DNA of 64,000 nucleotides from Armatimonadota bacterium (lineage in GTDB: Bacteria > Armatimonadota > Zipacnadia > Zipacnadales > JABUFB01), in NCBI GenBank assembly GCA_013314775.1, contig JABUFB010000008.1:789036-853035 (forward strand), given 5' to 3'. A program made the translations under genes and the position numbers. The notes under the pieces were generated by a model. It was not told the DNA's origin, did no database searches, and was given only the letters and a program-made list of their open reading frames with translations. Of this stretch, positions 12,995-60,312 are shown one piece after another. The stretch's first letter is position 1. Each line of letters begins with the position of its first letter.

Positions 12995-14572
12995 TTAGCC
13001 AGGCAAGGGCACTTCCTCGCCTGTAGCTCGGAGAACCGGCATCTGCGCGTTGACACCGGCCAGGTACTCCCTCAACTCCTCGGCCAGATCGGCGCGAAGG
13101 CTGACCTTGTCGTCGGCCAGATTTCTCGTTTCGCCAAGATCGCCTGCCACGTCGAACAGCTCGTAACGCTGGTCCGCGTGGTAGTAGATCAGCTTCCAAT
13201 CGCCCCGGCGGATGGTGCTCGAAGCCCCGATGCCGGGCCCGGTGGGTCCCCAGTTGTTGGGATAATGCCAGAAAAGAGAACGCTGCCCGGAAGGTTCATC
13301 GCCCCGCAGGAGTGGCGCGAAGCTCATGCCGTCCATTGCGCCGCCGGGTTGGGTATGTTGAGGAGCACCCGCCATCTCGAGAATGGTGGGGAAGAAGTCC
13401 TCGATAATGACCGGACTGTTGCACACCGTCCCGGCGCGTGTGACTCCCGGCCATCGGACGATCATCGGCTCCCGGATCCCACCCTCGTGAGCCGAACCCT
13501 TCCCACTGGACAGCGGCCTGTTGTGAGTATGCAGCTCGCCGCCGCGACCGTGAGCGCTCAGGCCACCGTTGTCGGACATGAAGAGCACAATCGTGTTGTC
13601 GGTGATGCCCCGGGCCTGAATGTTGTCCAGGATGTCCCCCAGCGACTTGTCCATTCCCTCCAGCAAAGCCGCATACTGGGCTTCGGTGTAGTCCAGACCC
13701 GCGTCGAGATAACGCTTTATGAACCGCTTGTCTTCGGCGAACGGCACATGCACGGCGTAGTGGGACATGTACAGGAAGAATGGCACGCCGTCGGCCACGG
13801 CCTGATCCATCTGCCGGTTCGCCTCGATGGTGAGGGCCTCGGTGAGGAAGATGTCCTGGCCGTGGTACTGGTCAAGGCCGGGGACATCCCATACATGCCC
13901 GCCACCACGCCATTGGGCGCTGAAGTTCTGAGTGCCGAGGTAACTGCCAGGACCGCCCGCGGCGTGTCCTGCGATATTGATGTCAAAGCCGATGTTGAGC
14001 GGGTCTGCGCCGGGCGTGTCGAGAGCACCAAAATGCGCCTTCCCAACATGGATCGTCCGGTACCCCGCCTTCCCGAGCAGCGCTGGGAGAGCTGTCGCAT
14101 GCACCGCGCGCTCCATCGAGGGGTCTGGACTAAGACCGTTCGCGTTCCAGTCGGGGATGATCAGGTCAGGGTGCTCCGGGTCGGTGTTCCTGTTGCGGTG
14201 AAGCGTCCAGTTGGTGACGCGATGGCGCGCGGCATTCAGCCCCGTCATCAGAGATACCCGGCTGGGCGAGCAAACGCAGCATGCGTAGGCCTGGGTGAAT
14301 TTGACGCCGCTGTCGGCCAGGCGCTCCATATTGGGCGTGTGGTAGCGGTTGTTGAATGGGGTGCGCCTCTCGTGGAACGGCAGGGATGTGTCCTGCCAAC
14401 CCATGTCGTCCACCAGAAACAGCACAATATTCGGCGGCATCGCTCTCTCCTCACGATTTCCAGCGTTAGCTGCCGTAGCCTGTGCGCCGAAGGCTGGCCC
14501 CGCTGCGGCTCCCCCGGCCGCCAGCGCTCCCAGGCGAAGTAACTCCCGACGGGTCATGGTCGGCCTGCTCAT
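12995..14572 (-). CDS. Tat-exported arylsulfatase
   Basis: A 525-residue sulfatase with a twin-arginine leader: MTRRELLRLGALAAGG followed by an Ala-rich stretch and an AFGAQA-type cleavage region. I start at ATG 14572; ATG 14557, directly at the twin-arginine motif, is equally possible. LFLVDDMGWQD (Asp55, Asp56) opens the metal site, and CSPSR at residue 101 is the formylglycine signature, extended by VSLMTG. SDNGGLSAHGRGGELHTHN provides later active-site residues. It therefore acts outside the cytoplasm and probably removes sulfate from a polysaccharide or aryl sulfate. Tat export fits a protein folded, and perhaps matured, before export. The sulfatase lies downstream of a dehydroquinase-like and an oxidoreductase gene on the same strand. 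Confidence 0.88.
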   Translation of the reverse strand: MSRPTMTRRELLRLGALAAGGAAAGPAFGAQATAANAGNREERAMPPNIVLFLVDDMGWQDTSLPFHERRTPFNNRYHTPNMERLADSGVKFTQAYACCVCSPSRVSLMTGLNAARHRVTNWTLHRNRNTDPEHPDLIIPDWNANGLSPDPSMERAVHATALPALLGKAGYRTIHVGKAHFGALDTPGADPLNIGFDINIAGHAAGGPGSYLGTQNFSAQWRGGGHVWDVPGLDQYHGQDIFLTEALTIEANRQMDQAVADGVPFFLYMSHYAVHVPFAEDKRFIKRYLDAGLDYTEAQYAALLEGMDKSLGDILDNIQARGITDNTIVLFMSDNGGLSAHGRGGELHTHNRPLSSGKGSAHEGGIREPMIVRWPGVTRAGTVCNSPVIIEDFFPTILEMAGAPQHTQPGGAMDGMSFAPLLRGDEPSGQRSLFWHYPNNWGPTGPGIGASSTIRRGDWKLIYYHADQRYELFDVAGDLGETRNLADDKVSLRADLAEELREYLAGVNAQMPVLRATGEEVPLPG

Positions 14573-17399: not shown

Positions 17400-20300
17400 T
17401 CACGCCGCTCGCAAGGCCCGGCATGCCCCATTTCCAATGTCGTGGGAGGGCAAGGCCCGCGCGGACACCCGCACGGGGATTGCTTGTGGGTCAGCGGCGC
17501 TGCCAAAGCACTCCTGCATAACCTGTCGAAGGACCCTGGCGCGTCCTGTCAGTACCCGCACAGCATCTTCCAGTTCCACGTCAGATAACGTCCTGGCGAG
17601 GAGTCTGCGCAGCCCATCGGGGTCGTTACAGAGCTTCTCGATCCGCTCTATCGTGGGCAGCATATCCTCAATGGTCATGTGTTCATCGATATAGGTGAGC
17701 CCGTAGCGGCCACGGCCCATGTCAACGATACGGCTCTTCATCGCCATCCGGAAGGTTGCGTCATCAGCGAAGGGATTGTTCTCAAGCAGGCGCTTCCCGC
17801 AGACATCGGCCATCCCGTGGTCGATGCTGATCACCCGACCGTCGCGCGTGACCAGGTAGTTTCCCATGTGCCGGTCGTGATCGCCCAGGAATGCGGCGAG
17901 CACCCGGTCGCGAGCGATCTGAGGCTTCAGCGCGATCTGGGCCTCATGGCTCAGATGCTTGAGGCAGGTGCCGTTGGCATTGCGGACATAGATGCCCTCT
18001 CGTACCTGGCCGCCGATGGTCATTTTCCCCTGGGCGCAGGCCGGAACCTCCACGCCGACAATGTCCCCGACGTCCGCGTAAACTTGCTCTGCGCGCAGGT
18101 CGTAGTGATCCGCAAAGCCCTCGCCTGACCCTTTGAAGATACCATGCTTCTGCAATCCGTTCTCCGTCTTGCGCCAGACCCAGTAGGGATCAGAATACGT
18201 CCCCTGCTCGCCGGGCAGGGCCATCTGCACTTTCTGCACTCCGGGTTCGGCGTCAATCGTCGCGACCTCGTCCGTGCTGATCTTGGCGTTGTGGCCGTCA
18301 TCCGGGCCTGGCTCAGCCTGGGCAAAACGTCTTCGGGTCTCGACGATGGTCCGAACCCGCCGCGTCTTCTCAGCCAGCATTTTCACCTGCGGGGTATCTC
18401 CTGCGCCCAGTTGCCGCAGAAGCGACAGGCGCTGGTGATAGCCGACCAGCGCCGCTTCGTACTCGCCCCTGATCACGAGACGATCCAGGTCGTCCGTGAG
18501 ACGACTTGACTGCTGGCGGAAGTAGACCGGGGCCTCCGCGGGTTGAGGCGGTGCCACCTGCTTCGTGCCCGGCACAGCTTTGAGTTCCTGGAGCGCCCGG
18601 GTCGCTTGCTTAGTCTGGACGCCCCATTCCTGAATGCGTTTGTCCAGGAGTTCCTGCCACGCACGAGCTTCTGCCGACATGCCCGCCTCTGCTGCAGCAT
18701 ACGCCTCGCGAGCGATGCGCAACTCTTCCAGGCGCTCCCAACCGATGCCCGGCTCTCCACGGCGGAACTGAGAGCCGGCCTGGTCCAGCATCTCGCGCAC
18801 CCTGTCACCCGATGCCCGCAGAGCGGCGCGGGCTTCGGCGGATGGCGCCCCGTCTCCGATCTCTTCCAGCGCCCTGCGCAGATGCTGGGAGTGCTGGGCA
18901 CCCAGTTCGCCTGCCGCCTGCGCGGAGGACGCAGTCTCTTCGGCCGCCTTGATGAGACTGCGCAGGTGCTCGGTGGTAATGCCGTGCTGGATCATGATCT
19001 TCTTCATCACGTCCACGTCACCCGCACCCCAGGCGGCGAACAGCTCCCCGAACAGTCGCCCGGCTTCCGCCTCGGCGCGCCCGTCAGAACCGGTGAGGAC
19101 CCCGAGGGTGCCGCCGGTTGCTTCGCCCACTTTCCCGATGGCAAGCTGCATCGCCATGTCGAGGCCGCGTTCCTGTACCCAGGTGCTGGTGGTGAAGAAA
19201 CGGCTGAACTGGTCCACCAGCATCTTCCCGGCGCTGCTCTGGGAGAGCAAGGCGGGAAGCTTGCCGATGCCCAACGCGGCTGAGGCCGCCTCTTTGGCCG
19301 TGACCACTGCGGACGTGGCCGGGCGCGCTTCGCCGATCCAACCCCAGTTCTTGAAGAAGACCACCTTTCCGTCCACCCGCCAGGCCGCACCCGGCCCCAG
19401 CCAGGTGAGGACATTGGCGATGTTGACGCAGTCGCCCCACCACTCGAGGGCTGTTTCCTGGTAGTCGCTCTTCTCGAAGTAGGGGACTCCGGTGTCCACG
19501 TCAAGCATCTGTTTGGGGACTTCAGCCAGACGCTTCACATCCACATTGGCAAAGGCGGCCTTTATGGCGGCGCGCATGCGGAGAGCGTCGTCGGCATCCA
19601 CGCTCTGGCCGGCTTCCGGGTACGCGGTGCGCATGAGCTTCATGAACTCGTCATTGGACAGCCTATCCAGGCCCTGGAGTGCCACGCCCCGCTCGTGGAG
19701 GCTCTGGATAAGCAGTATCCCGCAGTGCTGCCGGGCGACATCGTTCTGAAACTGCGATGCGAGGCTCTCCAGGGCGTCCTCACGGCCCACAGTAGCGCTG
19801 ACGGCGCTGAACACGCCCATTTTGAGGAACCCGACGACCGCACCGAGCCAGCCCTTCTCACCGCCTTTCGCCAGCCGTTGGTCCAGTTCGCCACGCAGGT
19901 CCGCCGCTTCGCCTTCAGCCTTGGCGTCGATCGCCTTGAGATAGGCGTGCTCCAGTGTCCAGGCCATGGCCCGGGCACGGTCCTCGAGGCCCGCTTTCTC
20001 GACGGTGATGAATCGCCGGGCCTCCTCGGCCGTTAGCGGCGCGCCGCCAGGTTCGCCCCCCGACAGCAACTCCACGACCTTGCGGTAACCGTGCAATGCG
20101 TGACGGATGTCGCCGTTCTGGTGAAAGTAGATGGCTTCGAGCATCCGAACTTCGGCCTCCGGGGCGCCAGCATCTATGGCGTCACGGGCCGCCACCCGGA
20201 ACAGGTCTCCTTGCTCCGAAGCAAGATACAGTTCGGCCCTGGCTAAGGCGCGCAGGCCCTGCGTGTCTCGGATGACCCGGGTTGCCGTGTCCCGGTTCTC

Positions 20301-22919
20301 CTCCACGTAGGCCTTCCTACCCTTGGCCTCCGCTTCGAGAATGATGCCGTCGTAATAAGTTTCGAGGGTCTCCTTGATGAGCTTGTCCTGCTCTGCCAGA
20401 ATCTGGGCATGCTGCTTTGTGAGGTCGTTGATGAGCCGCCTGACCACATCATCTGCCCGGTCTGTGGGCTGGGGCTTCGGCCCCCAGGCATCGTCCCAGA
20501 AGTCGATCCCGAACTTGATCGCGGCCTCGAGGTATGTGGCCGATTCCGTTTCAGGCAGTTTCTCCAGAAGCCCGCGCAGGTAGGTCAGACGCTGCCGGAT
20601 CGCTCGCGCCACCTCCGATTGGGCCCGCAGAAGCGCCACGGCCTCGGCCCTCTTACGCTCCGCAGTACGGACAGAATCCCAGAGGCCATCCGCCCATTTC
20701 TTCTCCAGAGCCCGTTCCTGGTCGATCTCCCGGAGGGTCTCCTCTAACGCATCGAACAGATGCCTCCGTTCTTCCTCTCGCGCGATGGTCGGCTCCGGTT
20801 CCTCCGCGGGCTCATATTCCGGCAGTCCAGAGGGCAGGATGTCATTCCATTCCGTACGCCACCAGCCGGGCTGCGGCCATGTATCGCGGTCCTTCGAAGT
20901 CCCCAGCTCGATGGGTCGGCCCGTATGCGCTTCGAAGATGCGGTCGGCCAGTGCGAGCCAGCGCTCCTGGTACAGCCAGAATCTGTCGACGTCATTCCGA
21001 TGGGTGATCGCCGTCTCGGCGAGTCGGTTCCAGGCCGATGCCCAGCCACACCACGCCTGCCGATCCCAGAAGTCAGCGGAATCCACGGACACGTCGCGCA
21101 GGGACGACTCGTACCAGACCATCGCCTGAAGCATAACGGGCCACAGGTCAGCCCTGTTCATGACATCGCAGGCGTAGGCCATCTCACCGAGAGTGGTCCA
21201 GTCTCTGAGAGCCGCGGGATCCAGGGCGCGGGCGGCGCCCAATATGGCGGTGGCGTCATGGATGAAAGGCGCCACGTCGTCGGGTGTCCGCGCGGCAAAG
21301 CGCACCAGGTCGCTCGCCGCCACCCAGAGTGTGCCCGAAAGGCCGCTCAATCGCTGGGCACGCTGCCGGCGGAAATCCAGGGCTCTCTCGGCGGCCCCTT
21401 CCTCTCCCGATGCCGCGGCTGCTTTTTCGTCGGCCTCGAGTTCCTCGATTAGTTGGCGCCCGGCCTTGTTGACGTCCGCCGGTCCCTTGAGCGCCTCCAG
21501 GTGGGCCGGATTGCTACCGTCACGAACGAAAGTGAACTCGAACTCGAAAATGAGACGGAAGCCCTCCACAGTGAAGACATGCACTGTAGCCTTGTGCTTC
21601 CCATTTGACATTCCCCAGTGCTCACCGCCGCCCCACTGGTGGCACTCGCCGTCCGCTCCAAATCTGCGGTGCAGAAATCGCGTCTGTCCGTTGCAGACCA
21701 CCGCAACCACGTGATCTTTGAGGTAGGGTTGCGCGATGGGGAACTCAAGCATCGCCTCCTCCCAGTTGGGGTCCTCGGACACCAGTTCTGCCAGAGGCTT
21801 GTCAGCTGGCAGCCCGCGCTTGCGGGCATCATCCCGGTACCGGGCGACTTCCGCCAGGTCCAGGTAGCTCAGCGTGGTGAATGCGAACAAGTCCGCAGTG
21901 CTGGAGGGGCTTTCGCAGGTGATCTCGTCGTTGAGTTCCGGCCCGTTCTCGTCGCAGCCCACCGTGATGTCTGTGAGAAAGAAGATGCGGCCTTTGGGAG
22001 GGGGCCCGGATGGTTCGCTCGAGGGACGCCTGGGCTTCCAGATCTGGGCGATCGCCCACTCGGCCATCTTCCGCACCCGCGCGTCCTTGTCCGTGAGGGC
22101 CAGTTGCAGGGCAGGCAAGGCCTTGACGGCCGATGGACCCATGCCGCCAAGGGTCTGAGCCGTTTGCAGGCGGATGTCGGGGAGCGGGTCGCTCAGGCGC
22201 TCGATGAGGTCGTCGATAGACAGCCCCCCGCTAGCCGCCTGCGGCGTTGCGGCCGGCTGTTCGGGGGCAGTAGGAGCCGTGCCGGGGCCTGCTCCGGTCG
22301 CCGGCGTCCCTCCTGGCCGGGCTGGTTCCTGACCCGCCGGCAGAACTGCCTGCGCAGGCTCTGCAGCGCCGGGCACTCCGCCCTGCCGGACGCCCTCAAC
22401 TGGTGCGCGCATACCCTCCAGGCCTCGCAGCTTCAGCTTCGCAAGATCGCTGACTCCCGCGTCGACATCACGGCTTGCGGCTTCCAGCAGTCCTAACCCG
22501 GCGGCGGGGGCACCTTTCACGCAGGCGACGGACCGCACCGCAGTCTGACGAACGCGTGGATCTGGGTCCCTCAGCGCGGTCTCAAAGCCCCCGACGACTT
22601 CGGGCGTCATCTCCCGGGCCCCCGACAGCGCGGCGACGGATGTCAGACGAACCGCAACGTCAGGGTCCTCGATTGCCTTGCGCAACAGAGCCAGCTCCTC
22701 ATCCCCGAAAGTCTCCAAAGCGGCAAGCTCCTGCGCGGCGGCCAGGCGTTCGCAGCGGCTGTCCGAAGCGATTCGGACGGCGATGCGCTCCAGTTGAGGC
22801 TGTTCAATTCGGGTGGTCTCGGCCTGCTGAGCCCTGCAAGAGCTGATAATGGCCAGAAGCAAGAGCGCTGGAACCGAGATCCGGATCGGAGCGATGTAAC
22901 CGTGACGGACGTGTAGCAT
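17400..22919 (-). CDS. Giant HEAT-repeat lipoprotein with C-terminal PI3/4-kinase-like domain
   Basis: A 1,839-residue protein. ATG 22919 is fixed by GGGAGGT seven bases upstream. A lipoprotein leader (ISVPALLLLAIISSC) gives an acylated Cys28. HEAT-type helical repeats occupy about residues 45-165 and 228-290, split by a Pro/Ala/Gly-rich linker. An unassigned beta-rich region (about 300-450), long Glu/Arg-rich helical or coiled-coil parts (about 690-900), a TPR-like part and further helices follow. The C-terminal 250 residues carry kinase features: GIFKGSG (Lys1596), RAEQVYAD (Glu1611), GDHDRHMGN (Asp1682, His1684, Asn1687) and SIDHG (Asp1700). This pattern matches bacterial PI3/4-kinase-like proteins. 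The substrate and the source of ATP outside the cytoplasm are unknown. A secreted beta-propeller gene lies 39 bp upstream. Confidence 0.8.
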   Translation of the reverse strand: MLHVRHGYIAPIRISVPALLLLAIISSCRAQQAETTRIEQPQLERIAVRIASDSRCERLAAAQELAALETFGDEELALLRKAIEDPDVAVRLTSVAALSGAREMTPEVVGGFETALRDPDPRVRQTAVRSVACVKGAPAAGLGLLEAASRDVDAGVSDLAKLKLRGLEGMRAPVEGVRQGGVPGAAEPAQAVLPAGQEPARPGGTPATGAGPGTAPTAPEQPAATPQAASGGLSIDDLIERLSDPLPDIRLQTAQTLGGMGPSAVKALPALQLALTDKDARVRKMAEWAIAQIWKPRRPSSEPSGPPPKGRIFFLTDITVGCDENGPELNDEITCESPSSTADLFAFTTLSYLDLAEVARYRDDARKRGLPADKPLAELVSEDPNWEEAMLEFPIAQPYLKDHVVAVVCNGQTRFLHRRFGADGECHQWGGGEHWGMSNGKHKATVHVFTVEGFRLIFEFEFTFVRDGSNPAHLEALKGPADVNKAGRQLIEELEADEKAAAASGEEGAAERALDFRRQRAQRLSGLSGTLWVAASDLVRFAARTPDDVAPFIHDATAILGAARALDPAALRDWTTLGEMAYACDVMNRADLWPVMLQAMVWYESSLRDVSVDSADFWDRQAWCGWASAWNRLAETAITHRNDVDRFWLYQERWLALADRIFEAHTGRPIELGTSKDRDTWPQPGWWRTEWNDILPSGLPEYEPAEEPEPTIAREEERRHLFDALEETLREIDQERALEKKWADGLWDSVRTAERKRAEAVALLRAQSEVARAIRQRLTYLRGLLEKLPETESATYLEAAIKFGIDFWDDAWGPKPQPTDRADDVVRRLINDLTKQHAQILAEQDKLIKETLETYYDGIILEAEAKGRKAYVEENRDTATRVIRDTQGLRALARAELYLASEQGDLFRVAARDAIDAGAPEAEVRMLEAIYFHQNGDIRHALHGYRKVVELLSGGEPGGAPLTAEEARRFITVEKAGLEDRARAMAWTLEHAYLKAIDAKAEGEAADLRGELDQRLAKGGEKGWLGAVVGFLKMGVFSAVSATVGREDALESLASQFQNDVARQHCGILLIQSLHERGVALQGLDRLSNDEFMKLMRTAYPEAGQSVDADDALRMRAAIKAAFANVDVKRLAEVPKQMLDVDTGVPYFEKSDYQETALEWWGDCVNIANVLTWLGPGAAWRVDGKVVFFKNWGWIGEARPATSAVVTAKEAASAALGIGKLPALLSQSSAGKMLVDQFSRFFTTSTWVQERGLDMAMQLAIGKVGEATGGTLGVLTGSDGRAEAEAGRLFGELFAAWGAGDVDVMKKIMIQHGITTEHLRSLIKAAEETASSAQAAGELGAQHSQHLRRALEEIGDGAPSAEARAALRASGDRVREMLDQAGSQFRRGEPGIGWERLEELRIAREAYAAAEAGMSAEARAWQELLDKRIQEWGVQTKQATRALQELKAVPGTKQVAPPQPAEAPVYFRQQSSRLTDDLDRLVIRGEYEAALVGYHQRLSLLRQLGAGDTPQVKMLAEKTRRVRTIVETRRRFAQAEPGPDDGHNAKISTDEVATIDAEPGVQKVQMALPGEQGTYSDPYWVWRKTENGLQKHGIFKGSGEGFADHYDLRAEQVYADVGDIVGVEVPACAQGKMTIGGQVREGIYVRNANGTCLKHLSHEAQIALKPQIARDRVLAAFLGDHDRHMGNYLVTRDGRVISIDHGMADVCGKRLLENNPFADDATFRMAMKSRIVDMGRGRYGLTYIDEHMTIEDMLPTIERIEKLCNDPDGLRRLLARTLSDVELEDAVRVLTGRARVLRQVMQECFGSAADPQAIPVRVSARALPSHDIGNGACRALRAA

Positions 22920-22958
22920 CAGTCTTACCTCCCGCGTGCGCAGCACGTCGATGGTTGC

Positions 22959-49149: not shown

Positions 49150-49188
49150 ATGGAAGCGCGGGACCTTCCCCCGCGTGGAGGTGAGACT

Positions 49189-50319
49189 GTGTACCACAGA
49201 CCGAATACTCTGCCCCGCGCGATTGCGTTCGTCTTCATCTTGACCGTGTGCGCCTCCACTGCCTGGTCGGCGTTACTGCCGGACTGGACGTGCTTCCGGG
49301 GCTCTCCTTATCTCAAAGGCGAACTCGGTGGGCCTTTCAGCGACCGGCCGAAGCTGCTATGGACCAAAGACATCGGCGGGGCCGTGGAATCAACGGCAGC
49401 CATCGTTGGCGGTGTGGTCTACGTGGGCAATGCGGACGGGCAGCTGGTGGCATTGAGCCTCAAGGACGGTAGCCGCAAGTGGGTCTACAAGGCCACGGAC
49501 AAGATCACCGCATCACCCTGCGTAACCAATGGTCTGGTCTGCGTGGGTGACGAGGGCGGCGTCTTCCACGCCGTGAAGGCCGCCACCGGGAAGCTGGCCT
49601 GGAAATACACGACAGGCGACAAGATCATCTCCTCAGCCACCCCCTACCGCGGGTCGGTGCTGGTGGGTTCGTATGACAACTACCTGTACCGTTTCGACAC
49701 CGACACCGGCAGCAAGATCTGGTCTTTCGGCACCGACGCCCAGGTTCACTGCACCCCCTGCGTCATCAACGGCACGGCCATCATCGATGGCTGCGACGGC
49801 GTCCTGCGCATGATCGATGTGGAGAAGGGGCGCGAGAGGGATTCGGTGGAGATCGGTGGCAACTATGCGGCATCCCCGGCATACTCCCAGGGCGCTGTGT
49901 TCGTGGGGAGCATGAACGGCGAGTACTTCGGGGTTCGGGTGAGTGACGGCAAGATCCTGTGGCGGGTTATCTCCCGCAAGAACGGTGGCGCGAGCTTTGG
50001 TTCCGGCGCTGTCTCCGGCAACTATGTGGTGTTCGGTTCGCGCAACAAGTCAGTCTTCTGTCTCGACCGGGAGACCGGGGCGACCCGGTGGGTGTTCCGA
50101 ACAAGGGGTGAAGTGGATTCGTCACCTGTTATTGCGGGGAGCCGGGTGTTCGTGGGGTGTGATGACGGGGCTGTGTACGGTCTGAATCTGAGCGATGGGA
50201 ATCAGTTCTGGAAGTTCACTGCGGGGGCTCGAGTAGCATCGTCCCCTGCCTTCGGGGCGAAGGGAACGCGGATGGTGATTGGCACTGACGACGGTGAGGT
50301 ACACTGTTTTGGGCGCTAA
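49189..50319 (+). CDS. Exported PQQ-like beta-propeller protein
   Basis: A 376-residue secreted protein. GTG 49189 is supported by GGAGG seven bases upstream and puts the signal peptide (AIAFVFILTVCASTAWSA) near the start; ATG 49150 is one base past the permease stop and is less likely. About seven BamB-like blades follow (VGGVVYVGNADGQLVALSLKDG, VCVGDEGGVFHAVKAATGKLAW, VFGSRNKSVFCLDRETGATRW). The blades show no enzyme site. It follows the FtsX transporter and precedes a second propeller gene by 46 bp, hinting that both act at the envelope with the transporter. Confidence 0.87.
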   Translation: MYHRPNTLPRAIAFVFILTVCASTAWSALLPDWTCFRGSPYLKGELGGPFSDRPKLLWTKDIGGAVESTAAIVGGVVYVGNADGQLVALSLKDGSRKWVYKATDKITASPCVTNGLVCVGDEGGVFHAVKAATGKLAWKYTTGDKIISSATPYRGSVLVGSYDNYLYRFDTDTGSKIWSFGTDAQVHCTPCVINGTAIIDGCDGVLRMIDVEKGRERDSVEIGGNYAASPAYSQGAVFVGSMNGEYFGVRVSDGKILWRVISRKNGGASFGSGAVSGNYVVFGSRNKSVFCLDRETGATRWVFRTRGEVDSSPVIAGSRVFVGCDDGAVYGLNLSDGNQFWKFTAGARVASSPAFGAKGTRMVIGTDDGEVHCFGR

Positions 50320-50365
50320 ATGAGCGCCGATATCTGACGCATCAAACACGCGAAAGGATGAGCCC

Positions 50366-51571
50366 ATGCGCAGCATGACCCGAGCAGGTGCGACACTCCT
50401 ACTCCTGGGCCTGATGTGTGGAGCATTTTCCGCCGACTGGCCGCAGTATATGGGCCCGACGGCCAACGGGATCGCCCCGGACACGGGGATCAACAAGGAC
50501 TGGAACGCCAAGCCGCCGAAGGTGGAGTGGAAGGTGGCGCTGGGCGACCGGGGATTCGCCGGACCGTGCGTGGCCGACGGCAAGGTCTTCATCATCGATC
50601 ACGCGGGCGACAAGGACATCGTCCGGGCGCTGAAACTGGACACAGGACAGGAAGTCTGGCGCTTCCCCTACCCGGACACTGCGCGCGAAAACTACGGATT
50701 CGCACGATCGACCCCCTGCTACAGCAACGGCCGCTTATACACACTGAGCCGCCTGGGGCTTGTGAACTGCCTGGATGCCACGGACGGCACACCATACTGG
50801 TCGGTAAACATCAGGCAGGACTTCGGTGGGCAGGCCCCGGAGTGGGATTACTCCGCTTCCCCCATCGTAGATGAGGGCAAGGTGATTCTCTGCCCCGGCG
50901 GGCAGACAGGCATTGTTGCGCTCGATGCCCGGAGTGGGGACACCGTTTGGACGGGCGGCAAGCCTGGGGTGCCGGGATACGCCTCGCCAGTAGTGGCCAA
51001 TATCCAGGGTGTGAAGCAATACGTCATATTCGCGGGCAAGCACATCTACGGCGCGGCGGCGGCGGACGGCAAGGTGCTCTGGTCGGTGCCGTGGGAGACG
51101 AGCTACGACGTGAACGCCGCGCAGCCCATCGTCGCTGGGAACTTTGTGTTCTTTTCCAGCAACTATGGCAAAGGCTGCAGCCTGATCGAGATTACCCCCG
51201 ACGGGGTCACGACCCATTGGACCAACAAGAACCTCCAGGCTCACTTCAACTCGCCTGTGTTCACCAACAACTGCTTCTTCGGAATCGGCGATCGCTACGG
51301 TCTGGTGTGCATCAACCCGCGCGACGGAGAGATACTGTGGAACAACCGCGAAATGGGCCAGAAGGGTGGCGTCGTTGCGGTGGACGGCGTCCTGATCGGC
51401 ATCAACTCCGATTCCGGCGCGGTCGTCATGTTCTCCAACTCCTTCGAGAGCTACCAGGAACTGGGACGTTTCACTCCCCTCGGTGGGCAGAGCTGGACCA
51501 TGCCGGTGATCGCAGACGGTAAGCTGATCATCCGCAACAAGGAAGCGATCTGCTGCGTAGACATCATGTAG
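50366..51571 (+). CDS. Exported PQQ-like beta-propeller protein
   Basis: A 401-residue secreted propeller. The signal peptide is MTRAGATLLLLGLMCGAFSA and the mature start DWPQYMGPTANGIAPDTG is typical of the 'outer membrane protein assembly BamB-like' propellers of Planctomycetes-type bacteria. Repeats include VADGKVFIIDHAGDKDIVRAL, DTGQEVWRFPY, CYSNGRLYTLSRLGLVNCLD and GLVCINPRDGEILW. It is the second propeller behind the ABC transporter. A strong terminator follows its stop, so it closes the operon that starts at or before the flavoprotein. Confidence 0.88.
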   Translation: MRSMTRAGATLLLLGLMCGAFSADWPQYMGPTANGIAPDTGINKDWNAKPPKVEWKVALGDRGFAGPCVADGKVFIIDHAGDKDIVRALKLDTGQEVWRFPYPDTARENYGFARSTPCYSNGRLYTLSRLGLVNCLDATDGTPYWSVNIRQDFGGQAPEWDYSASPIVDEGKVILCPGGQTGIVALDARSGDTVWTGGKPGVPGYASPVVANIQGVKQYVIFAGKHIYGAAAADGKVLWSVPWETSYDVNAAQPIVAGNFVFFSSNYGKGCSLIEITPDGVTTHWTNKNLQAHFNSPVFTNNCFFGIGDRYGLVCINPRDGEILWNNREMGQKGGVVAVDGVLIGINSDSGAVVMFSNSFESYQELGRFTPLGGQSWTMPVIADGKLIIRNKEAICCVDIM

Positions 51572-58738: not shown

Positions 58739-60312
58739 TGCCAGGAGTAATCGCATCGACGAATGGGGCGGGAGTTCCCGTCCCGATCAGCCGAGCCTAT
58801 GTTCTCCGAGCACTGTGGTGGCTCTACGTTGCAGGCGCTGCACTGACCTCGCTGACCACAGCAACTGCGGCAGATGATCAGGTAGGAGTCTTCGTGGTCG
58901 GGCCGGCCGGCGACACTCTTGCCCCGACCGGGGAGCAGCTTTCGCTGGGCCCTCAGCACGGCGACCCTTCGACAGGAACGGAACAGCCCGCGTGGACGCT
59001 GGATCTGCTCGCTCCCGAGACGAGCCCCACCACCTCTGGCAGCAGAGACGCTCCCTCCACGAACCTCGCGATCCGGCAGATCACGCCCGAGCAGGCAGCG
59101 CAGATCGCGGTTCGCGAAAGTCTCCAGCTTGACCTGAATACCGCCACGATCCAGCAGGCTGAGGCCGATCTTCTCCGTGCCCTGGGCCTGGATGATGTCA
59201 CCCTGAGCGCCGGGATGACCCTGGGCCGCACCGGCCCGTCCACGTCGACTGTCTATACGAAGCCCGACGGCACCACCGGGGTGCGCGAATCGGACAACAC
59301 GATCACCACCCAGCGTCTGTCTTTGAGCAAGACGCTGAGCATCGGCCGACAGCTTGAGCGCCAACGGAAGGTCGCGCGGAGATCCCTGGATCAGGCCCGA
59401 CTCTCACGGGACGTCGTCTCCCGCGCACTGGACCTCACTGCCCGCGAGCTCGCCTACGAAGTTCTGCGCACGGAACAGATCATCCGCGTGGCCGTGGACC
59501 AGGCCAATGCCCTCGCCGAACACCTGGCAGTGAGCAAGGATCTGCTGGAAGTGGGATCGGTGGCGCGTTTCGAGGTCGTTCAGGCCGAGACTGAACTGGC
59601 TCGAGCCCAGGGAGACGTGATCGCTGCCCGCACCGATTACGAGCGCGCCCTCGCCAGTCTGCGCCGTCTCCTCGTGATGCCCCAGGATCAGCCCCTGATG
59701 GTGATACCCGGAGAAGAGCCTCCGCTGCCGCAGGGTGACGAGAACGCCCTAGTGAAAATCGCGCTGGAACGACGACCGGAGGCTCTCGAAGCAGCCGCAG
59801 CTGTGGAGGTTGCCACGGCGCGCCTGCAGCTGGCGTTCACCTCCCGCAATGTCAGCGTCGGTGTGTCCGGGTCCATGTCGCGAGACGAGATCGGGCTCTC
59901 CACCAGCGACTGGCAATGGCAGATTGCGGTGTCAGCCACGAAGCCGATCTTCGACGGCCGCCAGGAGGAGAGCGAGGTTCTGGGGGCCCGTGCACGTCTG
60001 GATGCGGCGCAGGTGAGTCTGCGGGAAGTCCAGGAAGATATTGCGCTCGACGTGCGCGACGCCTCAATTCTGCTGCAAGACGCTCGCGAGCGCTTGCGAG
60101 TGGCCCGGCAGGGCCTCATCGAGGCTCGCGAGCGGTATGAGATCGCGCGGGTACGGTACGAGACAGGGTACGCCTTGGGCATTGAGGTGCTTGACGCCCA
60201 GGCATCTTTGACTCGCGCGGACGCGGATGTCGTGAACGCACAGTATAACCTCCAGGTGGCCACTGTCCGCCTGAGGTCCGCGGTGGGTCTGTGGGGTCAG
60301 CAAACGGAGTAG
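58738..60312 (+). CDS. TolC-family outer membrane efflux channel
   Basis: A 524-residue outer-membrane factor. The N-terminal leader contains a hydrophobic segment (WWLYVAGAALTSLTTATAA) and is longer than usual; a low-complexity Pro/Thr/Ser part follows to about residue 115. Two TolC repeats are seen: ITPEQAAQIAVRESLQLD to DLLEVGSVARFEVVQAETEL, and the second, with RYETGYALGIEVLDAQASLTRADADVVNAQYN at the end. It forms the exit duct for the adaptor and ABC pump encoded after it. ATG 58738 is used because the ATG at 58735 lies against the GGAGG. Presence of TolC argues for an outer membrane. Confidence 0.88.
   Translation: MPGVIASTNGAGVPVPISRAYVLRALWWLYVAGAALTSLTTATAADDQVGVFVVGPAGDTLAPTGEQLSLGPQHGDPSTGTEQPAWTLDLLAPETSPTTSGSRDAPSTNLAIRQITPEQAAQIAVRESLQLDLNTATIQQAEADLLRALGLDDVTLSAGMTLGRTGPSTSTVYTKPDGTTGVRESDNTITTQRLSLSKTLSIGRQLERQRKVARRSLDQARLSRDVVSRALDLTARELAYEVLRTEQIIRVAVDQANALAEHLAVSKDLLEVGSVARFEVVQAETELARAQGDVIAARTDYERALASLRRLLVMPQDQPLMVIPGEEPPLPQGDENALVKIALERRPEALEAAAAVEVATARLQLAFTSRNVSVGVSGSMSRDEIGLSTSDWQWQIAVSATKPIFDGRQEESEVLGARARLDAAQVSLREVQEDIALDVRDASILLQDARERLRVARQGLIEARERYEIARVRYETGYALGIEVLDAQASLTRADADVVNAQYNLQVATVRLRSAVGLWGQQTE

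What the first reader, a model, noticed from the sequence alone, without database searches (positions are those of the whole stretch)
17400..22919. Exported 1,839-residue HEAT-repeat lipoprotein ending in a PI3/4-kinase-like domain
Seen: a lipobox at Cys28, HEAT repeats, long helical regions, and at the C-terminus a complete set of kinase residues (Lys1596, Glu1611, Asp1682-Arg-His1684, Asn1687, Asp1700). Known: the GDHDRHxGN...IDHG pattern belongs to PI3/4-kinase-like and related atypical kinases. Inference: a kinase anchored outside the cytoplasm, comparable in idea to FAM20 or CotH secretory kinases. I know of no described bacterial system with this layout; ATP supply and target are open.
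Basis: partly seen in the sequence, partly recalled or inferred. Interest (0 to 1): 0.8.

Follow-up and report, generated by a model that had tools for sequence, protein, structure and literature searches.

The report
Exported atypical kinase of Armatimonadota bacteria
This giant bacterial protein carries an export signal at one end and a genuine, fully conserved PI4-kinase/CotH/HipA-type kinase domain at the other, so it probably phosphorylates something outside the cell's inner membrane, where such chemistry in bacteria is almost unstudied.

Summary
AlphaFold of residues 1468-1839 gives a confident kinase fold (pLDDT 78.9, pTM 0.80). It aligns best with type II PI 4-kinases (Z 18.1), then CtkA (15.7), CotH (13.7), Fam20A (13.4), actin-fragmin kinase (12.7) and HipA (12.2).

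In 291 Armatimonadota genomes I found eight members, in seven genomes of two families, in two architectures: HEAT + helical + kinase, and a shorter helical + kinase form. Lys1596, Glu1611, Asp1682, Asn1687 and Asp1700 are identical down to about 21% overall identity. His1684 is not. dN/dS against a sister species is 0.12. All seven members with a visible N-terminus begin with a signal-like sequence, but the lipobox is not conserved (Pro at -1 in the sister, no candidate Cys in G003), so "lipoprotein" is unproven while "exported" stands. Immediate neighbours look exported too.

Most likely this is a Sec-exported atypical kinase acting at the cell envelope. Substrate, ATP source and activity are untested. 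Exported CotH-type proteins already exist in the phylum, so I call it a new variant of a known kind.

The parts
17400..22919 (-). Gene for the 1,839-aa exported HEAT/helical/kinase protein
   Evidence: ORF and translation; residues checked; dN/dS 0.12 against sister species
22926..22933 (-). Shine-Dalgarno-like GGGAGG upstream of the ATG
   Evidence: sequence
22830..22919 (-). N-terminal signal sequence, residues 1-30; Cys28 (ISSC) is a lipobox candidate, with an alternative SPase I type site C-x-A|QQAE shared with the sister species
   Evidence: hydropathy peak at residues 9-27; sister and G003 N-termini
22524..22670 (-). N-terminal HEAT-like stretch (about residues 84-132)
   Evidence: Cnd1/PDS5-type HEAT matches, (numbering minus 9)
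22032..22217 (-). Best HEAT_2 stretch (residues 235-296)
   Evidence: PF13646 E = 3.7e-15
18519..20300 (-). Conserved mainly helical middle region (residues 874-1467), shared with type 2 relatives; fold unresolved
   Evidence: alignment A4; AlphaFold pLDDT 57.5; no significant fold match
17499..18287 (-). Atypical kinase domain (residues 1545-1807)
   Evidence: AlphaFold; VIA-align Z 18.1 to PI4KII-beta over model residues 78-339
18132..18134 (-). Lys1596 (putative ATP lysine)
   Evidence: invariant
18087..18089 (-). Glu1611 (putative helix C glutamate)
   Evidence: invariant
17874..17876 (-). Asp1682 (putative catalytic base)
   Evidence: invariant
17859..17861 (-). Asn1687 (putative metal ligand)
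   Evidence: invariant
17820..17822 (-). Asp1700 (putative metal ligand, DFG-equivalent)
   Evidence: invariant
17403..17414 (-). Extreme C-terminus Leu-Arg-Ala-Ala; six of eight family members end in R-x(0-2)-AA after otherwise unalignable tails
   Evidence: none of the other listed window ORFs ends in AA
22959..24134 (-). Exported PQQ/BamB-like beta-propeller gene directly upstream, about 40 bp gap; the pair is kept in the sister species
   Evidence: PF13360 E = 2.9e-29; sister locus

Best explanation
It is a Sec-exported atypical kinase of the PI4K-II / CtkA / CotH / Fam20 / HipA fold group. The signal sequence takes the chain across the inner membrane (inferred from sequence, with neighbour support). 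The HEAT and long helical regions form a scaffold that holds the C-terminal kinase at the envelope or surface and presents a substrate (inferred). The kinase domain binds ATP through Lys1596/Glu1611 and metal through Asn1687/Asp1700, and transfers phosphate using Asp1682 (fold and residue conservation shown, chemistry inferred). The substrate is probably an exported protein, glycan or lipid handled together with the exported products of the neighbouring genes. Which of the three, and where ATP comes from, is not known.
For: Kinase fold: AlphaFold pLDDT 78.9, pTM 0.80; VIA-align Z 18.1, rmsd 3.6, 235 residues to PI4KII-beta, and Z 12-16 to CtkA, CotH, Fam20A, actin-fragmin kinase and HipA; Foldseek E about 1e-5 to VPS34/PI3K/PI4K. 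Catalytic K/E/D/N/D invariant in seven divergent sequences. Purifying selection, dN/dS about 0.12 overall and 0.10 in the kinase. Export: a hydrophobic N-terminal segment in every member with a visible N-terminus, in both architectures. Immediate neighbours look exported: PQQ propeller (window and sister), NPCBM/PDZ proteins (G002, G003; PDZ without NPCBM at G001:C34), and an 800-aa signal-bearing protein (three f24 genomes), mostly with gaps of about 10-45 bp (longer in G002 if its start lies inside the ORF).
Against: No activity data. The catalytic-loop Arg/His are not fully conserved. The ATP source outside the membrane is unexplained. The middle region has no confident model. Signal peptides were judged by eye and hydropathy, not by SignalP. 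Pfam PF00454 stays under its cut-off.
Confidence: 0.68

Rival explanations
1. Pseudokinase or re-purposed kinase fold: the domain binds nucleotide but acts as a scaffold or does other chemistry (AMPylation as in SelO, glutamylation as in SidJ).
For: Atypical kinase folds often switch chemistry (established for SelO and SidJ). The catalytic-loop His is Arg in G002 and the Arg is Val or Ile in type 2 relatives. ATP is scarce outside the membrane.
Against: All five core catalytic residues are invariant across two architectures at about 21% identity, which pseudokinases seldom keep; dN/dS 0.10 in the kinase.
Confidence: 0.2
2. Exported lipid kinase: as in type II PI4K, the substrate is a membrane lipid head group, with the helical region lying on the membrane. 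(A sub-case of the best explanation as to substrate.)
For: Best fold match is PI4K-II, Z 17.4-18.1, about two units above the next family; the only Pfam kinase hit of note for the window protein is PI3_PI4_kinase.
Against: Fold neighbours also include protein kinases (CtkA, CotH, Fam20, HipA) at Z 12-16, and Z does not tell the substrate; no inositol-lipid pathway was looked for.
Confidence: 0.2
3. Secreted toxin or effector: the C-terminal kinase is delivered into a neighbouring cell to phosphorylate its proteins, like CtkA or polymorphic-toxin kinases.
For: CtkA, a secreted bacterial kinase, is the second fold match. A lantibiotic-synthetase-type kinase toxin has been described (PMC3482391).
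Against: The C-terminal domain is not exchanged between relatives, whereas polymorphic toxins swap theirs; no small immunity-like gene was recognised next to it in the loci read; the neighbours are enzyme- and adaptor-like exported proteins.
Confidence: 0.08
4. Cytoplasmic protein: the N-terminal hydrophobic segment is not an export signal and HEAT plus kinase act inside the cell.
For: HEAT repeats and PI3K-like kinases are mostly cytosolic in characterised proteins; the lipobox is not conserved.
Against: A signal-like N-terminus occurs in all seven members where it can be seen, in two architectures, with exported neighbours.
Confidence: 0.05

Closest known systems
Type II phosphatidylinositol 4-kinase (PI4KII-alpha/beta)
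   Same: Closest solved fold (Z 17.4-18.1, 232-236 residues aligned); PF00454 family match in the catalytic stretch.
   Different: Only 14-17% identity; Pfam score below cut-off; PI4KII is a eukaryotic palmitoylated enzyme of the cytosolic face (from memory), whereas this is a bacterial export-signal protein with HEAT and helical regions.
CtkA (Helicobacter pylori) and HipA/HipT kinases
   Same: Bacterial, same kinase fold (CtkA Z 15.7, HipA 12.2, HipT 11.2-11.8); two family members hit HipA_C (best E = 5e-4).
   Different: CtkA and HipT are small; no antitoxin-like partner recognised here; no Sec signal in HipA (from memory).
CotH spore-coat kinase (PF08757) and its exported relatives
   Same: Same fold group (Z 13.7); CotH-family proteins with Sec-type signals occur in Armatimonadota.
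   Different: No PF08757 match; profile comparison with four CotH domains of the phylum not significant; the window genome has no CotH hit.
FAM20A/B/C secretory-pathway kinases
   Same: Fold Z about 13; kinase acting in an extracytoplasmic compartment (PMC7948968).
   Different: Animal Golgi enzymes; two members here contain no Cys at all, so FAM20-type disulphides are not possible in those.
Eukaryotic PIKKs (mTOR, ATM)
   Same: Same order of parts: HEAT repeats, long helical region, C-terminal PI3K-like kinase; ATM and mTOR appear at Z 11-11.7.
   Different: The kinase is nearer PI4KII and CtkA; the relatives without HEAT suggest an independent assembly; the protein is exported.

Membership tests
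Protein-kinase-like fold (PI3/4K, HipA, CotH, Fam20 group) | Two-lobed kinase fold | tested here: met
   AlphaFold; VIA-align Z 18.1; Foldseek
Protein-kinase-like fold (PI3/4K, HipA, CotH, Fam20 group) | ATP Lys, helix-C Glu, catalytic Asp, Asn, metal Asp | tested here: met
   All five invariant in seven sequences; their geometry in the model was not inspected
PF00454 PI3_PI4_kinase | Score above the curated gathering cut-off | tested here: not met
   19.1 bits against 27.1; 0 of 291 phylum genomes over the cut-off
CotH (PF08757) | Match to the CotH profile | tested here: not met
   No hit in the protein or genome; hhalign against four phylum CotH domains not significant (small alignment)
HipA kinase | HipA_C domain plus HipB-type antitoxin gene | tested here: inconclusive
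   Two members match HipA_C, best E = 5e-4; no antitoxin-like gene recognised in the loci read
FAM20 | FAM20-specific sequence and disulphides | tested here: inconclusive
   Fold Z about 13; no Pfam Fam20C hit; two members have no Cys
Bacterial lipoprotein | Lipobox conserved in orthologues | tested here: not met
   Window ISSC; sister TSPC with Pro at -1; G003 AFA|QA
Sec-exported protein | N-terminal signal sequence in orthologues | tested here: met
   Hydrophobic N-terminal segment after a basic start in window, G001, G003, G001:C34, G059, G261, G262; no SignalP run
Active kinase | Phosphotransfer activity | not testable with these tools
   needs biochemistry

The most novel reading that the evidence does not exclude
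A dedicated extracytoplasmic phosphorylation system of Armatimonadota: an exported PI4K/CotH-like kinase on a HEAT/helical scaffold, recruited through its C-terminal R-x-AA tail by an exported PDZ adaptor or paired with a signal-bearing 800-aa partner, and opposed by exported phosphatases. In G029 the relative of that partner sits next to an exported phosphodiesterase/pyrophosphatase-family protein that shares the post-signal motif GSxIVDExGxxVGTGP with the type 2 kinases.
Probability: 0.2. Interest if true: 0.82.

Novelty: new variant of a known kind. Interest (0 to 1): 0.58.

Why it matters
Phosphorylation by bacterial enzymes outside the inner membrane is almost unexplored, and it is unclear whether ATP is available there for a resident kinase. 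A conserved, exported kinase family with a complete catalytic set, linked in apparent operons to exported PDZ, NPCBM and propeller proteins, gives a specific, testable case. It also shows a HEAT + helical + PI3K-like-kinase layout in bacteria, resembling eukaryotic PIKKs, apparently assembled independently.

Tried and rejected
The viral-contig scan with the kinase alignment found no relative. Plasmid tblastn with a type 2 kinase found none. Sequence searches of PDB found no kinase at significance; the top hits of the profile search are short chance matches to designed propellers. The AlphaFold model of the middle region is low confidence (pLDDT 57.5) and its Foldseek hits are not significant, so I claim no fold for it. 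A first CotH profile comparison used wrong frames for two rows and is discarded; one search replaces it with four domains. Giant helical proteins of G259, G065 and G064 that carry the f24 partner domain looked like possible relatives, but the mid+kinase HMM does not hit them. The PDZ partner was not found beside the window gene; in the window genome the best partner matches cover only its NPCBM stretch, elsewhere. The genome-contig scan used one peptide pattern and returned only Armatimonadota, so relatives in other phyla are not excluded.

Full report
WHAT IS THERE. The gene lies on the minus strand, ATG at 22919, stop at 17400, 1,839 codons, with a good ribosome-binding sequence. Pfam sees HEAT repeats with confidence (HEAT_2 3.7e-15) but the kinase only weakly, as PF00454 at E = 0.0013 over 32 residues (residue numbers there are 9 higher because the translated ORF starts at an upstream GTG).

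WHERE IT COMES FROM. The window sits in a 6.1-Mb genome (G000). Zipacnadia is a class of Armatimonadota described from marine sediments (PMC10290634).

THE FAMILY. Of 291 Armatimonadota genomes, seven have the kinase: all four of the window's own family, and three of another family, f24. The other 42 genomes of the class searched have none. The eight proteins fall into two types. Type 1 (window, G001 87% identity, G003 52%, G002 45% and incomplete) is, where complete, 1,839 to about 1,950 aa with HEAT, helical and kinase regions. Type 2 (G001:C34, G059, G261, G262) is about 1,140-1,240 aa from its likely start and lacks the HEAT part. The G001 type 1 gene has a frameshift in a fragmented assembly, which may be an assembly error. 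dN/dS between window and G001 is 0.12 overall and 0.10 in the kinase domain, so the protein is under clear purifying selection.

THE KINASE. Across seven sequences at 21-53% identity to the window protein, the invariant columns include Lys1596, Glu1611, Asp1682, Asn1687 and Asp1700. His1684 (Arg in G002) and Arg1683 (Val or Ile in type 2) are not invariant. AlphaFold on residues 1468-1839 with six sequences gave pLDDT 78.9 and pTM 0.80. VIA-align puts type II PI 4-kinases first (Z 17.4-18.1, rmsd 3.6, about 235 residues), then CtkA (15.1-15.7), CotH (13.0-13.7), Fam20 (12.6-13.4), actin-fragmin kinase (12.7), HipA/HipT (11-12) and PI3K/PIKK (10.5-11.7). Sequence profiles do not place it in any of these: PF00454 is below cut-off, CotH is absent, and HipA_C appears in two members at best E = 5e-4. 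So it is a kinase of this fold group, and not a demonstrated member of any one named family.

EXPORT. Window: MLHVRHGYIAPIRISVPALLLLAIISSC-RAQQAE. Sister: VPVVLLLAITSPC-TAQQAE, where Pro at -1 spoils the lipobox, while C-x-A|QQAE fits signal peptidase I in both. G003: LLPLLLWLLPAFA|QA. Type 2 members also begin with signal-like sequences. Export is therefore well supported by sequence (no SignalP run was possible), and lipidation is not.

NEIGHBOURS. In the window and the sister, a signal-bearing PQQ/BamB-like propeller precedes the kinase by about 40 bp. In G003, G002 and at G001:C34, the next gene downstream encodes a signal-bearing protein with an N-terminal domain alike in all three, with NPCBM in the first two and a PDZ domain in all three (NPCBM E about 1e-38; PDZ weak, best E from 1e-5 to 0.008). 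In the three f24 genomes an 800-aa signal-bearing protein with no Pfam match sits about 12-15 bp upstream. A relative of it (607 aa) in G029 is followed by a Phosphodiest-family protein (PF01663, E = 3e-24) that shares a post-signal motif with type 2 kinases. G003 has an alkaline phosphatase gene divergent from the kinase. These are genomic associations only.

C-TERMINUS. After tails that do not otherwise align, six of eight members end in R-x(0-2)-AA (window ...RALRAA, G002 ...GLREAA, G262 ...VWRQAA, G001:C34 ...FRLKAA); none of the other listed window ORFs ends in AA. Because PDZ domains bind free C-termini (general knowledge; Tsp-type PDZ binds ...AA), the PDZ neighbour could bind this tail. 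Three of the six have the PDZ gene next door; the window and its sister do not, nor does G262.

HOW IT MOST LIKELY WORKS. Shown: fold, conserved catalytic set, selection, signal-like sequences, signal-bearing neighbours. Inferred: export, ATP binding, phosphotransfer, scaffold role of HEAT/helical parts. Unknown: substrate and ATP source. The layout recalls PIKKs, but the kinase is closer to PI4KII/CtkA and half of the family lacks HEAT, which favours an independent assembly.

NOVELTY. Exported CotH-fold proteins are present in the same phylum (23 of 291 genomes with PF08757; the N-termini that could be read look signal-bearing), so an exported atypical kinase is not a new kind. The family, its architecture and its operon partners appear undescribed in the papers searched. 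I found one published kinase-type polymorphic toxin (PMC3482391) and secreted effector kinases in pathogens (PMC12189002), which are delivered into host cells and differ from this case.

Noticed in passing
L024:4403-6370, L025:79-1947, L022:1718-3349: Signal-bearing protein directly downstream of the kinase in three loci: N-terminal domain alike in all three with an H-x9/10-DG pattern like prepilin-type proteins, then NPCBM (two of three), then PDZ.
   Followed up: partly
L035:1262-3670, L036:2959-5367, L026:9069-11468: About 800-aa signal-bearing protein with no Pfam match, 45% identical between genera, 12-15 bp upstream of the type 2 kinase in all three f24 genomes; seems to carry a repeated domain (DWVIY...WLHIGTR...HATGHGT...GGTFGYS).
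   Followed up: partly
L075:6225-8405: Exported phosphodiesterase/nucleotide pyrophosphatase family protein sharing the N-terminal motif GSxIVDExGxxVGTGP with type 2 kinases, next to a relative of the f24 partner protein.
   Followed up: partly
L072:1253-7948 and L073:2-5560: Giant mostly unannotated proteins (2,232 and 1,853 aa ORFs) that fuse the f24 partner domain to a very long, apparently helical region; no kinase found.
   Followed up: partly
window 49150-51571: Two further ORFs in tandem with propeller-like ends, one with a signal-like N-terminus; not analysed.
   Followed up: no
window 17400-22919, antisense: Several long antisense ORFs (up to 292 aa) inside the gene, as expected from about 64% GC; no evidence that they are genes.
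   Followed up: no
window 13341-13438 (+) and 58960-59051 (-): ARAGORN calls tRNA-Ser(cga) inside the sulfatase ORF and tRNA-Pro(cgg); the cmscan found no Rfam match in the window, so both look like false positives.
   Followed up: partly
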